Source of the DNA: Euzebya rosea
Lineage (GTDB): Bacteria; Actinomycetota; Nitriliruptoria; Euzebyales; Euzebyaceae
Reading direction: 5' to 3'
Length of the DNA: 64,000 bases
NCBI RefSeq assembly: GCF_003073135.1
Contig: NZ_PGDQ01000010.1
Coordinates: forward strand, 62,001-126,000
Positions 31,271 through 59,110 of this stretch are shown piece after piece. Position 1 is the first letter of the stretch. Each line of letters opens with the position of its first letter. The notes beneath the pieces were generated by a model, which was not told where the DNA came from, ran no database searches, and saw only the letters and a program-made list of their open reading frames with translations. The position numbers and the translations under genes are program-made.

Positions 31271-32131
31271 ATGCCTGACACGCACGGTCTGCTCGCGATC
31301 CACGCCCACCCCGACGACGAGGTCATCACCACCGGGGGTGTGCTGCGCGACGGTGTCGTCCGCGGGTTCAGGGTGAAGGTCGTCACGTGCACCGACGGGT
31401 CACGTGGTGAGGTGGTCGGGGAGGGCATGGACCCCGACGAGGTCTTCCCGCGCCTGGCCGAGGTGCGCCGGGGCGAGATCGCCAACGCCCTGGGTGCGCT
31501 CGGCGTGACGGAGCACGAGTTCCTCGGCTACGCCGACTCGGGGATGATGGGGACAGAGGGCAACGAGGATCCCGCCTCGTTCTGGCAGGCGGACATGCAC
31601 GAGGCGATCGGTCGCGTCGTTGCGATCATCCGCAGCTTCCAGCCGGCGGTGTTCCTCACCTACGACCCGTTCGGCGGATACGGCCACCCCGACCACATCC
31701 AGACCCACCGGGTCGGGGTGCTCGCGGTGGAGGCTGCGTCGATGGCGGCGCTGTACCCCGAGGCCGGGCCGGCCTGGCGGACCCCGAAGGTCTACTACAC
31801 CGCCATCCCCAAGTCGGGGATCGTGAAGATGAACCAGATGTTCCTGGACCGTGGCCTGCCCTCGCCGTTCGGTGAGGAGGTCGACCCGGCGGACATCCCC
31901 ATGGGGACCGACGACGACCTGATCACCAGCCTGGTCGACGTCAGCGAGCACATCGAGGACAAGCAGGCCGCGCTGAAGGCCCACCACAGCCAGATCTCCC
32001 CCGAGTCGTTCTTCCTCAACGTCCCCGACGACCTCGTCCCCACCCTCTACGGCACCGAGTCCTTCGTCCGCGTCCGCAGCGACGTCCCGGTCCACGACGA
32101 CCTCGAGAAGGACCTGTTCACGGGGTTGTGA
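31271..32131 (+). CDS. mca: Mycothiol S-conjugate amidase (PIG-L deacetylase family)
   Basis: A 286-residue zinc deacetylase of the PIG-L family. The zinc site is HAHPDDE near residue 11-17 plus GHPDHIQTHR near residue 140. TCTDGSRGEV, EFLGYADSGM and the C-terminal AALKAHHSQISPESFFL are the features seen in Mca and MshB. The GYADSGM block and the length favour Mca, which cleaves mycothiol-toxin conjugates to a mercapturic acid and GlcN-Ins; MshB (mycothiol biosynthesis) is the alternative. It implies that the organism uses mycothiol as its thiol buffer. The 1.07-kb repeat element starts right after its stop. Confidence 0.88.
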   Translation: MPDTHGLLAIHAHPDDEVITTGGVLRDGVVRGFRVKVVTCTDGSRGEVVGEGMDPDEVFPRLAEVRRGEIANALGALGVTEHEFLGYADSGMMGTEGNEDPASFWQADMHEAIGRVVAIIRSFQPAVFLTYDPFGGYGHPDHIQTHRVGVLAVEAASMAALYPEAGPAWRTPKVYYTAIPKSGIVKMNQMFLDRGLPSPFGEEVDPADIPMGTDDDLITSLVDVSEHIEDKQAALKAHHSQISPESFFLNVPDDLVPTLYGTESFVRVRSDVPVHDDLEKDLFTGL

Positions 32132-32150: not shown

Positions 32151-32251
32151 CGTTGGTCCTCGCTCCGCTCGTCGGGTCCTCGGGCTCGTGACCGGCGATG
32201 TTCGTTGGTCCTCGCTCCGCTCGTCGGGTCCTCGGGCTCGTGACCGGCGAT
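32151..32251. repeat. 52-bp near-perfect tandem duplication in element 1
   Basis: The unit beginning CGTTGGTCCTCGCTCCGCTC at 32151 recurs at 32203, exactly 52 bp later, identical through to GGCGAT. It duplicates the terminal block of the element, probably by slippage or recombination. Confidence 0.9.
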
Positions 32252-32364
32252 CCGCTCCGCCGATTCTCGCCCCTCGCGAGCTCGTGGCTGCGAGTCTTGC
32301 TCACGGATCGCCGGCGCCCTGCGGCGGTGCGTGGGGGCCGCGGTGGGTCGGGCACGCGAACGGC

Positions 32365-32455
32365 GTGTGCGATGGGGGCCTCAGGGGGCGGTCGGCCGCA
32401 CGCGGGGTCGGCGTTCGTGGGGGTTGCCGGCCCCTGGGCGGCGTCGATCGCACAC
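32365..32455. repeat. Hairpin module A1 of element 1
   Basis: A 91-nt unit bounded by GTGTGCGATGGG and GGCGTCGATCGCACAC, whose outer nine bases are reverse complements. The same design recurs at 32674-32766 and 32812-32902; the copy at 32812 lies exactly 447 bp away. Confidence 0.8.
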
Positions 32456-32673
32456 CTGCGTTGAGGGTGGGTGGGCTGCCCACCCCCCGGCGGCGTCGAT
32501 CGCACACACCGCCCTGCGGTGAGTGGCGTGGGGTGGGTCAGTGACGATGAACCGCTCCACCGGTCTCGCGTGGGCGCGATGCGGGGCTGGCGGGTCGTCC
32601 CCTCGTCCGACGGTCGTCGGGGTCCGACAACGGGTGCGTGCGCGGGCTCAGCGGGTCGGGCACACGAACGGCC

Positions 32674-32766
32674 GTGTGCGATGGGCGCCCTCGGGGGTGG
32701 TCCAGCCCACCCGGGGTCCGGCCACGTGTGTGTGGCGCCGGCCGCCTGGCGGCGTCGATCGCTCAC
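32674..32766. repeat. Hairpin module A2 of element 1
   Basis: A 93-nt module with GTGTGCGATGGGC at its left end and GGCGTCGATCGCTCAC at its right end (one mismatch in the closing stem). The middle has the same GGGGTC-GGCC-CGT-GTGG order as the other modules. A GCACACG-AACGGC-CGTGTGC hairpin overlaps its left edge. Confidence 0.75.
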
Positions 32767-32811: not shown

Positions 32812-32902
32812 GTGTGCGATGGGCACCCCTGTGCGTGGTCGGATGCACGCGGGGTCTGGCCTCGTGGGGGTTGCCGGCCGCCTGACGGCGTCGATCGCAC
32901 AC
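32812..32902. repeat. Hairpin module A3 of element 1
   Basis: A 91-nt module, the 447-bp-displaced copy of 32365-32455. It is followed, as in that copy, by a second hairpin GGTGGGTG-CGCTG-CCCACC and another CGTCGATCGCACAC end at 32936-32954. Confidence 0.8.
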
Positions 32903-33210
32903 GCGGGTCGAGGGTGGGTGCGCTGCCCACCCCCTGGCGGCGTCGATCGCACACACCGCCCGGGCGAACGTCGCTGCGGGTGGTCAGCCGCGTGGAACGC
33001 CCCGCCGGCTACGCGTGGGTGCGATGCAGCGGGTCCGGACGGGGCGGGGCACACCCGGCTCCGAGGGTGGGTGCGATCGTCCGCTCACCGGGCTGTCGAA
33101 CGCACACACCGGTCGTGTGCCCGACAACCATGGTGTGCCGACCGCACCGAGGTGCCCACCCACCGCCGCAGGTCACGAGCCCGAGGACCGTCGGCTCGAA
33201 GAGACGACAA

Positions 33211-33840
33211 TCAGAACGTGCCGAAGAGCCGGTCGCCGAAGTCGCCGAGCCCGGGGACGATGTAGCCGACATCGTTGAGGCCCTCGTCGATGGAGGCCGT
33301 GACGATGCGGATGTCCGGGTCGGACTCCGTCAGGCGGGCGATGCCCTCGGGTGCGGCGATGATGCAGACCAGCGTCAGGTCGGTCGCGCCGCGGTCGCGC
33401 AGCAGCTTGGCGGCGAAGGCCGCCGAGCCGCCGGTCGCGAGCATCGGGTCCAGCAGCAGGACGCTGGCGTCGTCCAGCGACGGCGCCTTGTAGTAGTACT
33501 CGGTGGGCTGGAGGGTCTCCTCGTTGCGCTCCAGCCCCACGTAGCCCACGCCGATGTCGGGCAGCAGGTCGGTCGCTGCGCTGAGCATGCCGAGCCCGGC
33601 CCGGAGGATCGGGACCGCGACGACGTGGCGGCCGATGCGGGTCACCTCGGTGGCGGTGATCGGCGTCCGGACGGTTTCCGTCACGGTGGGCAGCGACCGG
33701 GTGGCCTCGAGCACGAGGACCGAGGTCAGGCGCTCGGCCAGCGCCCGGTAGCGCTCGGGCTCGGTGTCGGCATCGCGCAGGTCGGCCAGCAGATGGCCGG
33801 CGAGCGGGTGGTCAACGACTGTCACACGGTCCTGGGGCAT
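33211..33840 (-). CDS. upp: Uracil phosphoribosyltransferase
   Basis: A 209-residue UPRTase. It has VVAVPILRAGLGM (substrate loop), EYYYKAP, the PRPP-binding loop LLLDPMLATGGSA, and the C-terminal uracil-binding GYIVPGLGDFGDRLFGT. It makes UMP from uracil and PRPP in pyrimidine salvage. The frame opens 30 bp further up, but the family starts at about MPQDRVTVVDHPL. CAGGGT ends 8 nt before that ATG, like the leaderless genes. It is divergent from the BMP-type nucleoside transporter, fitting a salvage role. Confidence 0.95.
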   Translation of the reverse strand: MPQDRVTVVDHPLAGHLLADLRDADTEPERYRALAERLTSVLVLEATRSLPTVTETVRTPITATEVTRIGRHVVAVPILRAGLGMLSAATDLLPDIGVGYVGLERNEETLQPTEYYYKAPSLDDASVLLLDPMLATGGSAAFAAKLLRDRGATDLTLVCIIAAPEGIARLTESDPDIRIVTASIDEGLNDVGYIVPGLGDFGDRLFGTF

Positions 33841-33912
33841 GGCCGCCAACCCTGCCAGACACGGGGACATCCGGCCACCGGTCCGTGGTTAACTACCACG
33901 ATCGGAGGTCGC

Positions 33913-39579: not shown

Positions 39580-40461
39580 ATGAGCGACGCCGACGGCGGG
39601 GATGCCCTGCTGGCGTCGGAGCACGCCGAACCGGGTGTGTCCGCCGACGCGGCCCTGGACGCCCTCGCCGACGAGGCGACGATGGTCGTGGCGGTGCGGA
39701 CCGACGGCAAGGCCGCGATCCGGCGGGGGCTGCCAGCCGGCATCGAGGCTGCCGGGCTGTCCGCGCCCGTGCTGGCCGGCACGGCCGTGGCGATCGTGCT
39801 GGACATGGGTGCCGACACCGAGGCGATCGCCCTGTTCGGCCGGTTCCAGGACCCGCGGGCCGCGCTGGTCGGGACCGAGGATCCGGCAGCGGTCCTCGGC
39901 GCGCTCGGCTTCGGGCAGTGGCGGGTCAGGCATCGGTTCTGCAGCCGCTGCGGGGCGCCGCTCGAACCGCGCGCCGACGGACGGGTCCTGCGCTGCACCG
40001 CGGAGGACACCGAGCAGTTCCCCCGGCTGGAACCCGCCGTGATCATGCGGGTCGTCGACGTCGACGACCGGATCCTGCTCGGTCGCCAGCCCATGTGGCC
40101 GCCGGGTCGCTTCAGCGTGCTGGCCGGCTTCGTCGACCCGGGCGAGTCGCTGGAGGCCGCCGTGGTCCGGGAGATCATGGAGGAGGTCGGTGTGCCCGTG
40201 CGCGACGTCGCCTACCACTCCTCGCAGCCGTGGCCGTTCCCCGCCAGCCTCATGCTCGGGTTCACCGCTACGGCGACGTCGACCGACTTGGTGCTCGAGG
40301 ACGAGATCGCCGAGGCCCTGTGGTTCTCGCGGGAGGAGCTGGCCGAGGCGATGGACCGGGGCCAGGCGTACGTGCCCCCCGACGTCTCGATCGCCCACCA
40401 CCTGCTCGTCGACTGGCTGGGCGCCGACGTGCCCCTCGCGACCTGGTACGACCAGCGCTGA
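39580..40461 (+). CDS. nudC: NudC-like NAD(H)/NAD-RNA Nudix hydrolase
   Basis: A 293-residue Nudix enzyme. The N-terminal NUDIX-like domain precedes a zinc-ribbon region and the Nudix box GFVDPGESLEAAVVREIMEEVGV, matching the consensus. NudC-specific SQPWPFPASLM follows, and the C-terminus has VPPDVSIAHHLL. NudC cleaves NAD(H) to NMN and AMP and removes NAD caps from RNA. The ribbon has CSRCG and one later Cys (LRCT), but the fourth expected Cys is absent, so zinc binding may be altered. Upstream lie the nucleoside transporter genes. 16-bp tandem repeats overlap the stop codon. Confidence 0.9.
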   Translation: MSDADGGDALLASEHAEPGVSADAALDALADEATMVVAVRTDGKAAIRRGLPAGIEAAGLSAPVLAGTAVAIVLDMGADTEAIALFGRFQDPRAALVGTEDPAAVLGALGFGQWRVRHRFCSRCGAPLEPRADGRVLRCTAEDTEQFPRLEPAVIMRVVDVDDRILLGRQPMWPPGRFSVLAGFVDPGESLEAAVVREIMEEVGVPVRDVAYHSSQPWPFPASLMLGFTATATSTDLVLEDEIAEALWFSREELAEAMDRGQAYVPPDVSIAHHLLVDWLGADVPLATWYDQR

Positions 40462-40534
40462 TCACGGCCGGCGCTGATCACGGCCGGCGCTGATCACGGC
40501 CGGCGCTGATCACGGCCGGCGCTGACCACGACCG
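40455..40534. repeat. 16-bp tandem repeat, five copies, over the nudC stop codon
   Basis: Four perfect copies of GCGCTGATCACGGCCG and a fifth with two changes run head to tail from 40455. Each unit holds TGATCA and, at the junction, CGGCCGGCG. An inverted partial copy (CAGCGCCGGCCGTCAGCGATCAG) follows at 40552-40574, reaching the stop of the convergent gene. The array could fold into alternative hairpins and serve as a two-way terminator. Confidence 0.9.
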
Positions 40535-40571
40535 GCGCTGACCCGTTCGGACCAGCGCCGGCCGTCAGCGA

Positions 40572-51846: not shown

Positions 51847-52167
51847 GTGACCTACACGATCTGCGAGCCCTGCATCGACGTGAAGGACAAGGCCTGCATC
51901 GAGGAATGCCCCGTGGACTGCATCTACGAGGGTGACCGGATGCTCTACATCCACCCCGATGAGTGCGTGGACTGCGGTGCCTGCGAGCCCGCATGCCCCG
52001 TCGAGGCCATCTTCTACGAGGACGACGTCCCGGACGAGTGGAAGGAATTCACTCCCTGGAACGCCGAGTACTTCGAGGACGGCGTCTCCGGCGTCGGTTC
52101 CCCCGGCGGTGCCGCCAAGGTCGGCGCCTCCGGCGTCGACCACCCGAAGGTCGCCGCCTGGGAGTAA
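51847..52167 (+). CDS. fdxA: 7Fe ferredoxin
   Basis: A 106-residue ferredoxin of the actinobacterial FdxA type. The N-terminal cluster region [20 protein letters not shown] combines ligands for a [3Fe-4S] and a [4Fe-4S] cluster; the second motif [12 protein letters not shown] is CX2CX2CX3CP. A C-terminal extension of about 35 residues ends PKVAAWE, as in mycobacterial FdxA. It transfers single electrons, for example to cytochromes P450 or oxidoreductases. AGGAGG lies about 9 nt before GTG. A perfect 12-bp terminator follows after 18 bp, so it is monocistronic. Confidence 0.96.
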
Positions 52168-52185
52168 CTCCCACGCAGAACCCAC

Positions 52186-52213
52186 GAACCCCGCGTCCCA
52201 CGACGCGGGGTTC
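52186..52213 (+). terminator. Intrinsic terminator of fdxA
   Basis: Perfect 12-bp stem GAACCCCGCGTC / GACGCGGGGTTC around a 4-nt loop, with the T-rich stretch GACTCTTT after it. It lies 18 bp downstream of the fdxA stop. Confidence 0.88.
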
Positions 52214-52222
52214 GACTCTTTG

Positions 52223-53046
52223 CATGGCCTCGCTGCGCTCGGACGGTCCTCGGGCTCGTGACCGACGATCCGCTCCGCCGATTTCGCCCCTCACGAGCTC
52301 GTGGCTGCGAGTCCTGCTCACGGAGCGTCGGCGCCCTGCGGCGGTCGGTGGTGGTGGGTTCGGTCGCGGAGGTCGGTTCGGTCGCGGTGGTCGGTTCGGT
52401 CGCGGTGGTCGGTTCGGTCGCGGTGGTCGGGCTGGCGTGTGGCTTGGGCGTCTCTGAGGGTGGTCGATCGCACCCGGGGTGGGGCCTCGTGCGCGATGCA
52501 CGCCCTCCAGCGGCGGGGATAGCCCACGGCGGCCGAGGGTGGGTGTCATTCCCTCCACCTGGGGATGTCCAACGCACACACCAGCTGTGTGCGGGGCTCG
52601 CCGAGGCGCTCACCCGCCGCCGTACGGCGTGGCGTTCGGCCGCCCGGCGTGGCGTCCGGCCGCCCGTGGTCGGGATGGCGTGTGGCCTGGGCGCCGCTGA
52701 GGGTGGCCGGTCCCACCCGCGGTGAGGCCGCGTGTGCGATGCACGCCTTCCAGCGGCGTGGATGCCAAACACCGGCCGAGGGCGTGCGCGATGGACAGCC
52801 CCCACCGAGGGGAATCGCACACACCGTTCGTGTGCGGGGCCCTCCGAGGTCCACACGCACCGCCGCAGGGCGCCGACGACTCCGTGGTGGCTCCCGCAGT
52901 GCCCCGATGCGAAGCGAGGGGTCGAGGAAGCCGCCGCGGATCGTCGGTTACGAGCCCGAGGACCGTCCGAACGGAGTGAGGACCAACGAACAACGCGAGG
53001 ACCAGCAACAACGCGAGGACCAACCAACAACGCAAGGACCGACAGC
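52223..53046. repeat. Non-coding palindromic repeat element, copy 2
   Basis: This stretch of about 820 bp fills the gap between fdxA and the convergent sirtuin gene. Its ends are inverted repeats of roughly 100 bp. The left end reads CGGTCCTCGGGCTCGTGACCG, GACGATCCG and, after about 70 bp, CGTCGGCGCCCTGCGGCGG; the right end is the reverse complement of these blocks (CCGCCGCAGGGCGCCGACG, CGGATCGTCGGTTACGAGCCC). Inside is a 243-bp imperfect tandem duplication (52434-52620 and 52677-52862) with CGCACACACC/GTGTGCG hairpins, and an 18-bp microsatellite. The right flank repeats AACAACGCGAGGACC three times. The ends match copy 1 at 32135-33200. No coding potential is seen. Confidence 0.82.
52357..52428. 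repeat. 18-bp tandem repeat, four copies, inside element 2
   Basis: GGTTCGGTCGCGGTGGTC is repeated head to tail at 52357, 52375, 52393 and 52411; only the first copy has a mismatch. There are no spacers, so this is a minisatellite and not CRISPR. Confidence 0.92.
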
Positions 53047-53077: not shown

Positions 53078-53839
53078 TTACCCCAGGACGTCGCCGGCGC
53101 TGCCGTGGACGACGACGTCGGCCAGGTGGTCGAGGGGGGTGGGTTCGCGGTTGACGATGGCGAGGGGGAGGCCGCGGTCGACCGCATCCACCGGCATGCC
53201 GGCGACGGGGTGGACCTGGAGGGAGGATCCGACGACCAGCATCGCGTCGGCCCTGGCCATCAGCTCGGCGGCGGCGTCCATGGACGTGGTGTCCATGGCC
53301 TGGCCGAAGCTGATCGTGGCCGACTTGACCAGCCCACCGCAGGTGGGGCAGGCAGGGTCGGGATCACCCTCGTCGATGCGCTGGAACGCCCACGTCGTGT
53401 CGGCGCTGAACCCGCACCCGTCGGGGGTGCCCCAGCGGGGCCGTCGACCGATGCAGCCCACCGTCCTGGCCGTGCCGTGGATCTCCACCACGGTCTGCGA
53501 GCCGGCTTCCTGGTGGAGCCCGTCGATGTTCTGGGTGATCACCCCGACGCTGCGCCCCTCGGCCTCCATCGCAGCGATGGCCAGGTGCCCCCGGTTCGGT
53601 CGTGCCCCGGCGGCGAAGAACTCCCGTCGCATCGCCCAGGACATGGCGCGGACCTCGGCGGACTCGACGTACCGGTCGAACGTCATCTGCCGCGGGTCGT
53701 AACGCGTCCACACCCCGCCGGGTGAGCGGAAGTCGGGGATGCCCGACTCCGTGGAGATGCCCGCGCCCGTCAGGACCAGGAGGCGTTCGGCGCGGCGCAG
53801 GAAGTCCGCGAGGGTGGCGTCAGCAGGCGGGTCGACCAT
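53078..53839 (-). CDS. Sirtuin NAD-dependent protein deacylase
   Basis: A 253-residue sirtuin. It has LLVLTGAGISTESGIPDFRSPGG (NAD-binding), VITQNIDGLHQEAG, the catalytic His in VVEIHGTA, and VGSSLQVHPVAGMP. It removes acyl groups from lysines using NAD+, releasing nicotinamide. The zinc ribbon is unusual: the second pair is a normal CPTC, but the first two Cys are 13 positions apart (GCIGRRPRWGTPDGC) instead of close together. Whether zinc binds normally is open. Start ATG gives the usual length. It is convergent with fdxA across element 2. Confidence 0.93.
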   Translation of the reverse strand: MVDPPADATLADFLRRAERLLVLTGAGISTESGIPDFRSPGGVWTRYDPRQMTFDRYVESAEVRAMSWAMRREFFAAGARPNRGHLAIAAMEAEGRSVGVITQNIDGLHQEAGSQTVVEIHGTARTVGCIGRRPRWGTPDGCGFSADTTWAFQRIDEGDPDPACPTCGGLVKSATISFGQAMDTTSMDAAAELMARADAMLVVGSSLQVHPVAGMPVDAVDRGLPLAIVNREPTPLDHLADVVVHGSAGDVLG

Positions 53840-58240: not shown

Positions 58241-59110
58241 ATGGGTGGCGTGCACATGCCAGAGGCGGAGCTTCGCGCGTTCCTCCGGGTCTTCCTGCCC
58301 GAGGAACGAGTCGAACCTGCCCTGGACTCCATCGCCCTGATGGGGCTGGAGATCGAGGCGACCGATCCGCTCGAGCTGTTCGTGCTGGCCCACATGGAGG
58401 TCGAGCCGGACCCGCGGGTCACGCTGGAGTCCGAAGCGGTCGTGCTGGTGGAGGAGGTGGGGCTCGACGCGGTCGACGTGTCGGCGATCCTCGGCATCGA
58501 GGAGTCGGCCGTCATCGAGGCCGTCGACCGTGCGTGGGCCGACCACGGCAACCCCGAGGCATCGGTGGACGCCGACGCCGAGGTCGTCCCCGACGCTGCG
58601 CCCGACGTCGATGTCGAGCCCGAGGTCGACGCTGCGCCCGAGGTCGATGTCGAGCCCGAGGTCGACGCTGCGCCCGAGGTCGACGTCGAGCCCGAGTCGA
58701 TGGACCGGACCGTCGAGCTGCCGGGCCTGCCGCTGCAGACCGTCGAGTCCTCGGCGTCGGCCCCCGACATCGAGGCCGTCGAGGGCGACGCACCCCCAGT
58801 GCTGGTGGCGCCCCGGCGTCGCCCCTGGGGGGCCATCATCGGCACGGTCGCGGCCGTCGTCACGATCGGCGGACTGGGCCTGGTCGCCACCTCCGAGGCC
58901 GGCCAGCAGATCCTCGCCATGCAGGGCATCGACCCGTTCGTCTTCGTGGCCGTCATCTTCGGGCTGGTGTTCGGCGGCATCGCCTTCGTGCGAGCGGGCA
59001 GCACCCCGCCACCGGTCGACCAGCCCGTGGGGCCGGACCCCGACGGATCCGACACCGCTGCGGCTCGCGACGAGGTTCCCCACGAGCCGGCAGGGTCACC
59101 GACGAAGTAG
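58241..59110 (+). CDS. Membrane protein with DUF-like helical N-terminus and VEPEVDAAPE repeats
   Basis: A protein of about 289 residues, unrecognised family. The N-terminus (LRAFLRVFLPEERVEPALDS and on to about 95) is helical and soluble. An acidic linker follows with 12-residue repeats PEVDVEPEVDAA (36-bp DNA unit, 58601-58696), then two membrane helices (about 195-220 and 230-250) and a hydrophilic tail. Start options are ATG 58241, GTG 58250 and ATG 58256; GAAGAT just before GTG 58250 would suit a leaderless start there. Its end overlaps the convergent permease gene by 15 bp. Confidence 0.65.
   Translation: MGGVHMPEAELRAFLRVFLPEERVEPALDSIALMGLEIEATDPLELFVLAHMEVEPDPRVTLESEAVVLVEEVGLDAVDVSAILGIEESAVIEAVDRAWADHGNPEASVDADAEVVPDAAPDVDVEPEVDAAPEVDVEPEVDAAPEVDVEPESMDRTVELPGLPLQTVESSASAPDIEAVEGDAPPVLVAPRRRPWGAIIGTVAAVVTIGGLGLVATSEAGQQILAMQGIDPFVFVAVIFGLVFGGIAFVRAGSTPPPVDQPVGPDPDGSDTAAARDEVPHEPAGSPTK

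What the first reader, a model, noticed from the sequence alone, without database searches (positions are those of the whole stretch)
52223..53046. Second copy of the same element, with roughly 100-bp terminal inverted repeats
The left end (from CGGTCCTCGGGCTCGTGACCG to CCTGCGGCGG) and the reverse complement of the right end align over roughly 100 bp. The outer 28 bases differ at only one position, and the inner 19 are identical. Both ends also match element 1, including CTGGTCCTCGCGTTGTTCG. This shows a dispersed repeat family and not one-off low-complexity DNA.
Basis: seen in the sequence. Interest (0 to 1): 0.78.

Follow-up and report, generated by a model that had tools for sequence, protein, structure and literature searches.

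The report
Dispersed palindrome-array elements at gene ends
This stretch is one of dozens of non-coding repeat elements scattered at the downstream ends of genes in two sister actinobacterial species; their cores are triple palindromes whose key bases are kept by selection, which suggests a previously undescribed set of chromosome-wide protein-binding sites rather than inert repeat DNA.

Summary
52229-52345 and 52858-52980 form a ~120-bp inverted repeat (alignment score 105; best of 1000 shuffles 35). Element 1 is related, and the family is dispersed. The 'terminal inverted repeat plus filler' picture is incomplete, because the middle is the more informative part. R3 is a 143-bp unit of three 39-bp palindromes at exact 52-bp steps. 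The own genome holds ~57-60 R3 units and one sister species ~35-40; two other congeners and 57 further relatives have no credible match. Elements sit at gene 3' ends (34 convergent, 32 tandem, 1 divergent). Palindrome arms do not covary, so R3 is not a conserved hairpin. Yet between orthologous R3 units lacking E, half-site bases change in 6% of cases, against 35% for other R3 bases and 23% at third codon positions. E copies are homogenised within each genome (28 of 30 closest to a paralogue). No ORF, autonomous relative or REP transposase was found. Best reading: a REP/BIME-like composite repeat whose core is a selected array of binding sites for an unidentified protein. New variant of a known kind; no experiment supports the function.

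The parts
51847..52167 (+). ferredoxin gene, left neighbour; convergent with Sir2
   Evidence: Pfam Fer4 4.8e-10; gene call
52185..52214 (+). GC-rich 13-bp hairpin after the ferredoxin stop codon, probably the gene's own terminator; hairpins also present in congeners that lack the element
   Evidence: fold -27.2 kcal/mol; equivalents in G001-G003; the tool's strict terminator scan does not list it
52229..52345 (+). left end unit E, subtype A (outer tail from 52223)
   Evidence: profile and alignment
52350..52439 (+). spacer of ~18-bp tandem repeats (GGTCGGTTCGGTCGCGGT) between left E and first R3
   Evidence: family D11
52437..52579 (+). first R3 unit: palindromes 52437-52475, 52489-52527, 52541-52579
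52680..52822 (+). second R3 unit: palindromes 52680-52718, 52732-52770, 52784-52822
52858..52980 (-). right end unit E, subtype B, inverted relative to the left E
   Evidence: hairpin z = -3.9
52981..53046 (-). outer tail of the right E: repeats of GGTCCTYGCGTTGTTGGT
   Evidence: sequence; arm I1
53078..53839 (-). Sir2-family gene, right neighbour
   Evidence: Pfam SIR2 1.9e-41
32159..32329 (+). element 1: partial plus full E unit (subtype A) right after the PIG-L-type gene (stop at 32131)
32365..32507 (+). element 1: first R3 unit
32674..32766 (+). element 1: degenerate palindrome pair (54-bp spacing)
32812..32954 (+). element 1: second intact R3 unit
33069..33107 (+). element 1: isolated single palindrome
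33157..33195 (-). element 1: remnant right E with its hairpin deleted, before the uracil phosphoribosyltransferase gene (33211-33870 -)
   Evidence: sequence; I5 and I9; UPRTase

Best explanation
The element is a composite, non-coding extragenic repeat, E-(R3)n-E. Shown: R3 is a 143-bp array of three 39-bp palindromes spaced exactly 52 bp apart, found in dozens of copies at gene 3' ends in two sister species, with half-site bases (GnGnGnnnTnnnCnnC and its mirror) kept under constraint while the rest drifts. Inferred: each palindrome is the site of a dimeric DNA-binding protein, and three sites on one face of the helix (52 bp is about five turns) act together. The likeliest role is architectural, for example isolating neighbouring transcription units or organising the chromosome at gene ends; these sites avoid promoters, so classical promoter regulation is unlikely. 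E units are the part that spreads and is homogenised between loci, most simply by ectopic gene conversion through the long repeats. Elements that lose E persist as R3-only sites because R3 itself is useful.
For: Fixed architecture: pair spacings 52 (122 times) and 104 (63 times) dominate, as expected for triplets. Census: strict 12-base pattern 105 in G000 and 66 in G003 against 2 reversed controls each; R1 profile hits of full length, 57 and 35 units in the fetched loci. Constraint: in 12 orthologous locus pairs without E, half-site positions differ 6.2%/5.6%, other R3 positions 35%, third codon positions 23% (regions aligned without the R3 model); the same positions are 89-99% fixed in E-bearing loci, an independent set. 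Not a hairpin: 66.6% of cells paired against 67.9% in shuffles, 493/500 shuffles at least as high. Position: 34 convergent/32 tandem/1 divergent against 67/174/63 background; divergent depletion p = 2e-5, convergent enrichment p = 7e-6. Homogenisation of E: 28 of 30 closest to a paralogue at another locus, often 95-99%, orthologues mostly 53-94%. Orthologous sites that lost E keep an E 3' remnant and R3 (L167).
Against: No binding protein is identified and no binding, expression or deletion data exist. Loci entered the constraint test only if both species still show an R3, so loss is under-counted (at L066 the G003 orthologue lacks R3). R3 single strands fold more stably than shuffles (mean z -2.5), so an RNA or ssDNA role is not fully excluded. 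The sister species mostly share sites, so the number of independent observations is limited. Gene calls come from a home-made finder.
Confidence: 0.5

Rival explanations
1. A miniature non-autonomous mobile element (MITE- or REPIN-like). E units are terminal inverted repeats used by a transposase acting in trans, R3 is passenger DNA, and gene 3' ends are merely where insertion is tolerated.
For: ~120-bp terminal inverted repeats. Dispersed copies, subfamilies and within-genome similarity. The element lies inverted at one orthologous locus (L059/L141). R3 locus L066 is absent from G001, G002 and G003, and in G001 the two genes are nearly abutting.
Against: No transposase between E units and no autonomous copy, 7 hits. 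No target-site duplication seen. Y1_Tnp (RAYT) absent from all four congeneric genomes. Most loci are shared between species. Constraint on half-sites in E-less relics is not expected of dead passengers.
Confidence: 0.3
2. A bidirectional transcription terminator or 3'UTR stability element that works as RNA hairpins read from both convergent genes.
For: Position after stop codons, mostly convergent or tandem. Subtype B of E folds as a long hairpin (z about -2 to -5) and the outer stem is kept in all three subtypes with exchanged pairs. R3 mean z -2.5.
Against: Palindrome arms in R3 do not covary. Subtypes A and C of E mostly fold little better than shuffles. The ferredoxin gene already has its own hairpin, with counterparts in congeners that lack the element. 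E is lost at several loci.
Confidence: 0.13
3. A strong gyrase (topoisomerase) site, BIME-2-like, that absorbs positive supercoils between convergent genes.
For: R3 length (143 bp), overall dyad symmetry and 3'-end location resemble the ~130-bp symmetrical gyrase motif and gyrase-cut BIME-2 elements (PMC6379681).
Against: No ~10.5-bp periodicity of A+T in aligned R3 units, whereas the E. coli gyrase motif is defined by 10.75-bp GC periodicity (PMC6379681). Sharp base-specific invariants look like direct readout. Half of the loci are not convergent.
Confidence: 0.07

Closest known systems
REP / BIME elements (REP-type extragenic palindromes in mosaic arrays)
   Same: Short palindromes in dozens of extragenic copies, arrayed with fixed spacing, at gene 3' ends, avoiding divergent promoters, and used as an insertion target by an IS element (PMC3733652, PMC1525189).
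   Different: 39-bp palindromes always in triplets at 52-bp steps, no GTAG/CGTC tag, no arm covariation, flanked by separate ~120-bp E units, no REP-associated transposase in the genomes.
REPINs
   Same: Inverted doublet arrangement with a central segment, within-genome homogeneity and solo relics (PMC3116915).
   Different: REPINs show common compensatory changes and a RAYT gene; here arms vary independently and Y1_Tnp is absent. The solo relics here are constrained.
MITEs
   Same: Short, non-coding, long terminal inverted repeats, dispersed.
   Different: No target-site duplication, related transposase or new insertion demonstrated.
E. coli strong gyrase sites / BIME-2
   Same: Length near 130-145 bp, dyad symmetry, 3'-end position.
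   Different: No helical A+T phasing; strict base-specific half-sites instead.

Membership tests
REP / BIME | 20-40-bp palindrome in many extragenic copies, mostly between convergent or co-directional genes | tested here: met
   39-bp palindrome, 105 strict copies; 34 convergent, 32 tandem, 1 divergent
REP / BIME | unpaired GTAG or CGTC tag at one end | tested here: not met
   module consensus GTGTG...CACAC with no such tag
REP / BIME | RAYT (Y1_Tnp) gene, for the GTAG class | tested here: not met
   PF01797: 0 of 4 genomes; found in 5 of 14 control genomes
REPIN | hairpin of two inverted REPs with compensatory changes | tested here: not met
   R3 pairing no better than shuffles
MITE | terminal inverted repeats, no coding capacity, dispersed | tested here: met
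   no gene called inside the finding
MITE | target-site duplication at filled sites | tested here: inconclusive
   none visible at the finding or at L066 against G001; inspection only, old insertions
MITE | autonomous relative sharing the terminal inverted repeats | tested here: not met
   all E matches examined flank non-coding DNA or stand alone; draft genome, so not exhaustive
Intrinsic bidirectional terminator | conserved base-pairing with T tract | tested here: not met
   no arm covariation in R3; no terminator match inside the element
Strong gyrase site | ~130-bp motif with ~10.75-bp GC periodicity | tested here: not met
   no peak near 10.5 bp in 39 R3 units
Strong gyrase site | gyrase binding or cleavage in cells | not testable with these tools
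   needs Topo-seq
Known Rfam RNA family | match at gathering score | tested here: not met
   0 matches in the window

The most novel reading that the evidence does not exclude
R3 is the binding array of an unknown, lineage-specific architectural DNA-binding protein that marks dozens of gene ends around the chromosome. It was spread by the E-flanked composite repeat and then kept by selection after the E units decayed: a selfish or recombinogenic repeat domesticated into a chromosome-organising system.
Probability: 0.35. Interest if true: 0.75.

Novelty: new variant of a known kind. Interest (0 to 1): 0.52.

Why it matters
What selection, if any, maintains REP/BIME-type repeats is an old question. 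Here orthologous copies in two species allow it to be tested directly, and one part of the element (regularly phased half-sites) is kept while the rest drifts. If confirmed, this family gives an actinobacterial system in which a repeat has become a set of selected binding sites at gene ends, and a precise 143-bp bait for finding the protein.

Tried and rejected
Rfam: no match. tRNA/tmRNA: none. RNA hairpin for R3: rejected by arm independence. RNAalifold on the E alignment gave a weak, mixed structure because the three subtypes misalign; type-by-type folding was used instead. RAYT: absent. Gyrase phasing: absent. Plasmid collection: no match. Spread outside the genus: the 19-mer gives 20 isolated hits among 84,980 species, consistent with chance; R1 gives only two marginal hits (E about 5e-4 and 1e-3) in G021 and G013. 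An attempt to name the organism through a remembered plasmid accession failed. Two 400-kb samples of G002 held no strict palindrome, so its 9 pattern hits stay unlocated.

Full report
OBSERVATION. The finding is correct. The two ends of 52223-53046 are a ~120-bp inverted repeat far above chance (score 105, best of 1000 shuffles 35), and both match element 1. In the whole draft genome (5.5 Mb, 40 contigs) the element matches about 20 loci. The 19-mer GGTCCTCGGGCTCGTGACC occurs exactly 15 times and 23 times with up to two mismatches, with no reversed-pattern control hits.

ANATOMY. Iterated profiles show two building blocks. E is the inverted-repeat end, about 120 bp, pointing outward with its outer end towards the neighbouring gene, in three subtypes (A, B, C) that differ in the arms of an internal hairpin. 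R3 is a 143-bp unit of three 39-bp palindromes, GTGTGnnnT...AnnnCACAC, repeated at exactly 52 bp; the whole unit also matches its own reverse complement. The finding is EA - R3 - R3 - EB. Element 1 is EA - R3 - degenerate pair - R3 - single palindrome - remnant E. Pair spacings in all fetched loci are 52 (122 times) and 104 (63 times), the ratio expected for triplets. No gene is called inside the finding or element 1.

DISTRIBUTION. A sequence-only profile of R3 (R1) finds full-length units only in the own genome and in its close relative G003; G001 and G002 of the same genus have none. Among 60 relatives searched only two marginal matches appear elsewhere. The strict 12-base palindrome pattern gives 105 (G000), 66 (G003), 9 (G002) and 0 (G001), against 2, 2, 0 and 0 reversed controls. 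None was found in 400 kb of the 0.57-Mb second replicon of G003. The 19-mer has 20 isolated hits in 84,980 species.

LOCATION. A home-made periodic Markov gene finder trained on 464 kb gave the background (67 convergent, 174 tandem, 63 divergent gaps). Element clusters lie in 34 convergent, 32 tandem and 1 divergent gap (4 at contig ends). Divergent gaps are avoided (p = 2e-5) and convergent ones enriched (p = 7e-6). At the finding the neighbours are a ferredoxin and a Sir2-family gene, at element 1 a PIG-L-type gene and a uracil phosphoribosyltransferase, both pairs convergent.

NOT A HAIRPIN. If R3 worked as RNA or cruciform hairpins, variable positions in the two arms should change together. 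They do not: 66.6% of cells are paired against 67.9% after shuffling, and 493 of 500 shuffles do as well or better (per-position test). R3 strands do fold somewhat better than shuffles (mean z -2.5), which can follow from the symmetric conserved bases. The ferredoxin gene has its own hairpin ahead of the element, with counterparts in congeners that lack the element.

CONSTRAINT. The positions G1, G3, G5, T9, C13 and C16 of each half-site are 89-99% fixed in E-bearing loci. Tested on a separate set, 12 orthologous locus pairs without E, aligned as whole regions without the R3 model, they differ in 6.2% or 5.6% of cases (two directions), other R3 positions in 35-36%, third codon positions in 23% (similar). 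The linker GGG triplets are also kept. Drift, homogenisation or hairpin pairing would not spare just these bases. The limit of the test is that only loci with a recognisable R3 in both species enter it.

EVOLUTION. About 25 of the loci are shared between the two species, yet 28 of 30 E units with an orthologue are closer to a copy elsewhere in the same genome (p = 9e-7), and R3 in E-bearing loci behaves likewise (23 of 27), whereas in R3-only loci 23 of 37 are closest to the orthologue. At several orthologous loci one genome has subtype B and the other C, or the element lies inverted. Sites that lost E keep sequence resembling its 3' end (L167 clearly; L145 and L057 more weakly). At L066 the R3 is absent from G001, G002 and G003: in G001 the two genes nearly abut, and in G003 another gene lies there. 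I infer old sites, ectopic gene conversion through E, and decay to R3-only copies. New insertion is possible but unproven; Y1_Tnp is absent.

MECHANISM. Shown: architecture, distribution, location, absence of covariation, constraint, homogenisation. Inferred: a dimeric protein binds each palindrome, three dimers align on one face (52 bp is about five turns), and the array acts at gene ends in an architectural or insulating way. Rivals are a mobile element, a terminator and a gyrase site; the last two each fail a defining test. An IS element with an rve-type transposase has inserted in the middle palindrome of R3 at the orthologue of the finding in G003, flanked by a direct repeat of about 15 bp read by eye, a parallel to IS elements that target REPs (PMC1525189).

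PLACEMENT. It works like a REP/BIME-type repeat in position and copy number, but fails the tag, RAYT and compensatory-change features of REPs and REPINs (PMC3733652, PMC3116915), so it is a new variant and not a member.

Noticed in passing
L132:1560-2870 (G003 orthologue of the finding): An IS element with an rve-type transposase (ORF 1899-2786) sits in the middle palindrome of R3, with ~28-bp inverted ends and a ~15-bp direct repeat CGTCTCCTCGGGGCG read by eye at both junctions.
   Followed up: partly
G002, positions not listed: Nine strict 39-bp palindrome matches against 0 controls although the R3 profile finds none there; 800 kb sampled without locating any.
   Followed up: partly
G003:C1:1035017-2443349: A 1.4-Mb stretch without R3 loci (P about 0.025 for 26 random loci); R3 is also absent from 400 kb of the second replicon.
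   Followed up: partly
L066:1360-1540: A 54-bp direct duplication that includes the 3' end of the upstream gene, beside the R3 unit.
   Followed up: no
L134 (G001): The Sir2-like gene next to ferredoxin lies in tandem rather than convergent, and in G002 it is elsewhere, so this junction has been rearranged in the genus.
   Followed up: no
window 40432-40557: Six-copy 16-bp tandem repeat (ATCACGGCCGGCGCTG) between genes, unrelated to the finding.
   Followed up: no
window 58555-58696: 18-bp repeats inside an apparent coding region, giving an acidic repeat.
   Followed up: no
window 52185-52214 and congeners: The ferredoxin 3' hairpin differs in sequence but is present in all four congeners, a candidate conserved terminator.
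   Followed up: partly
L135:905-990 (G001): A different short repeated palindromic sequence (GGCGTCAGCCGNGGGAGGCCCCGATCG) after the uracil phosphoribosyltransferase gene in G001.
   Followed up: no
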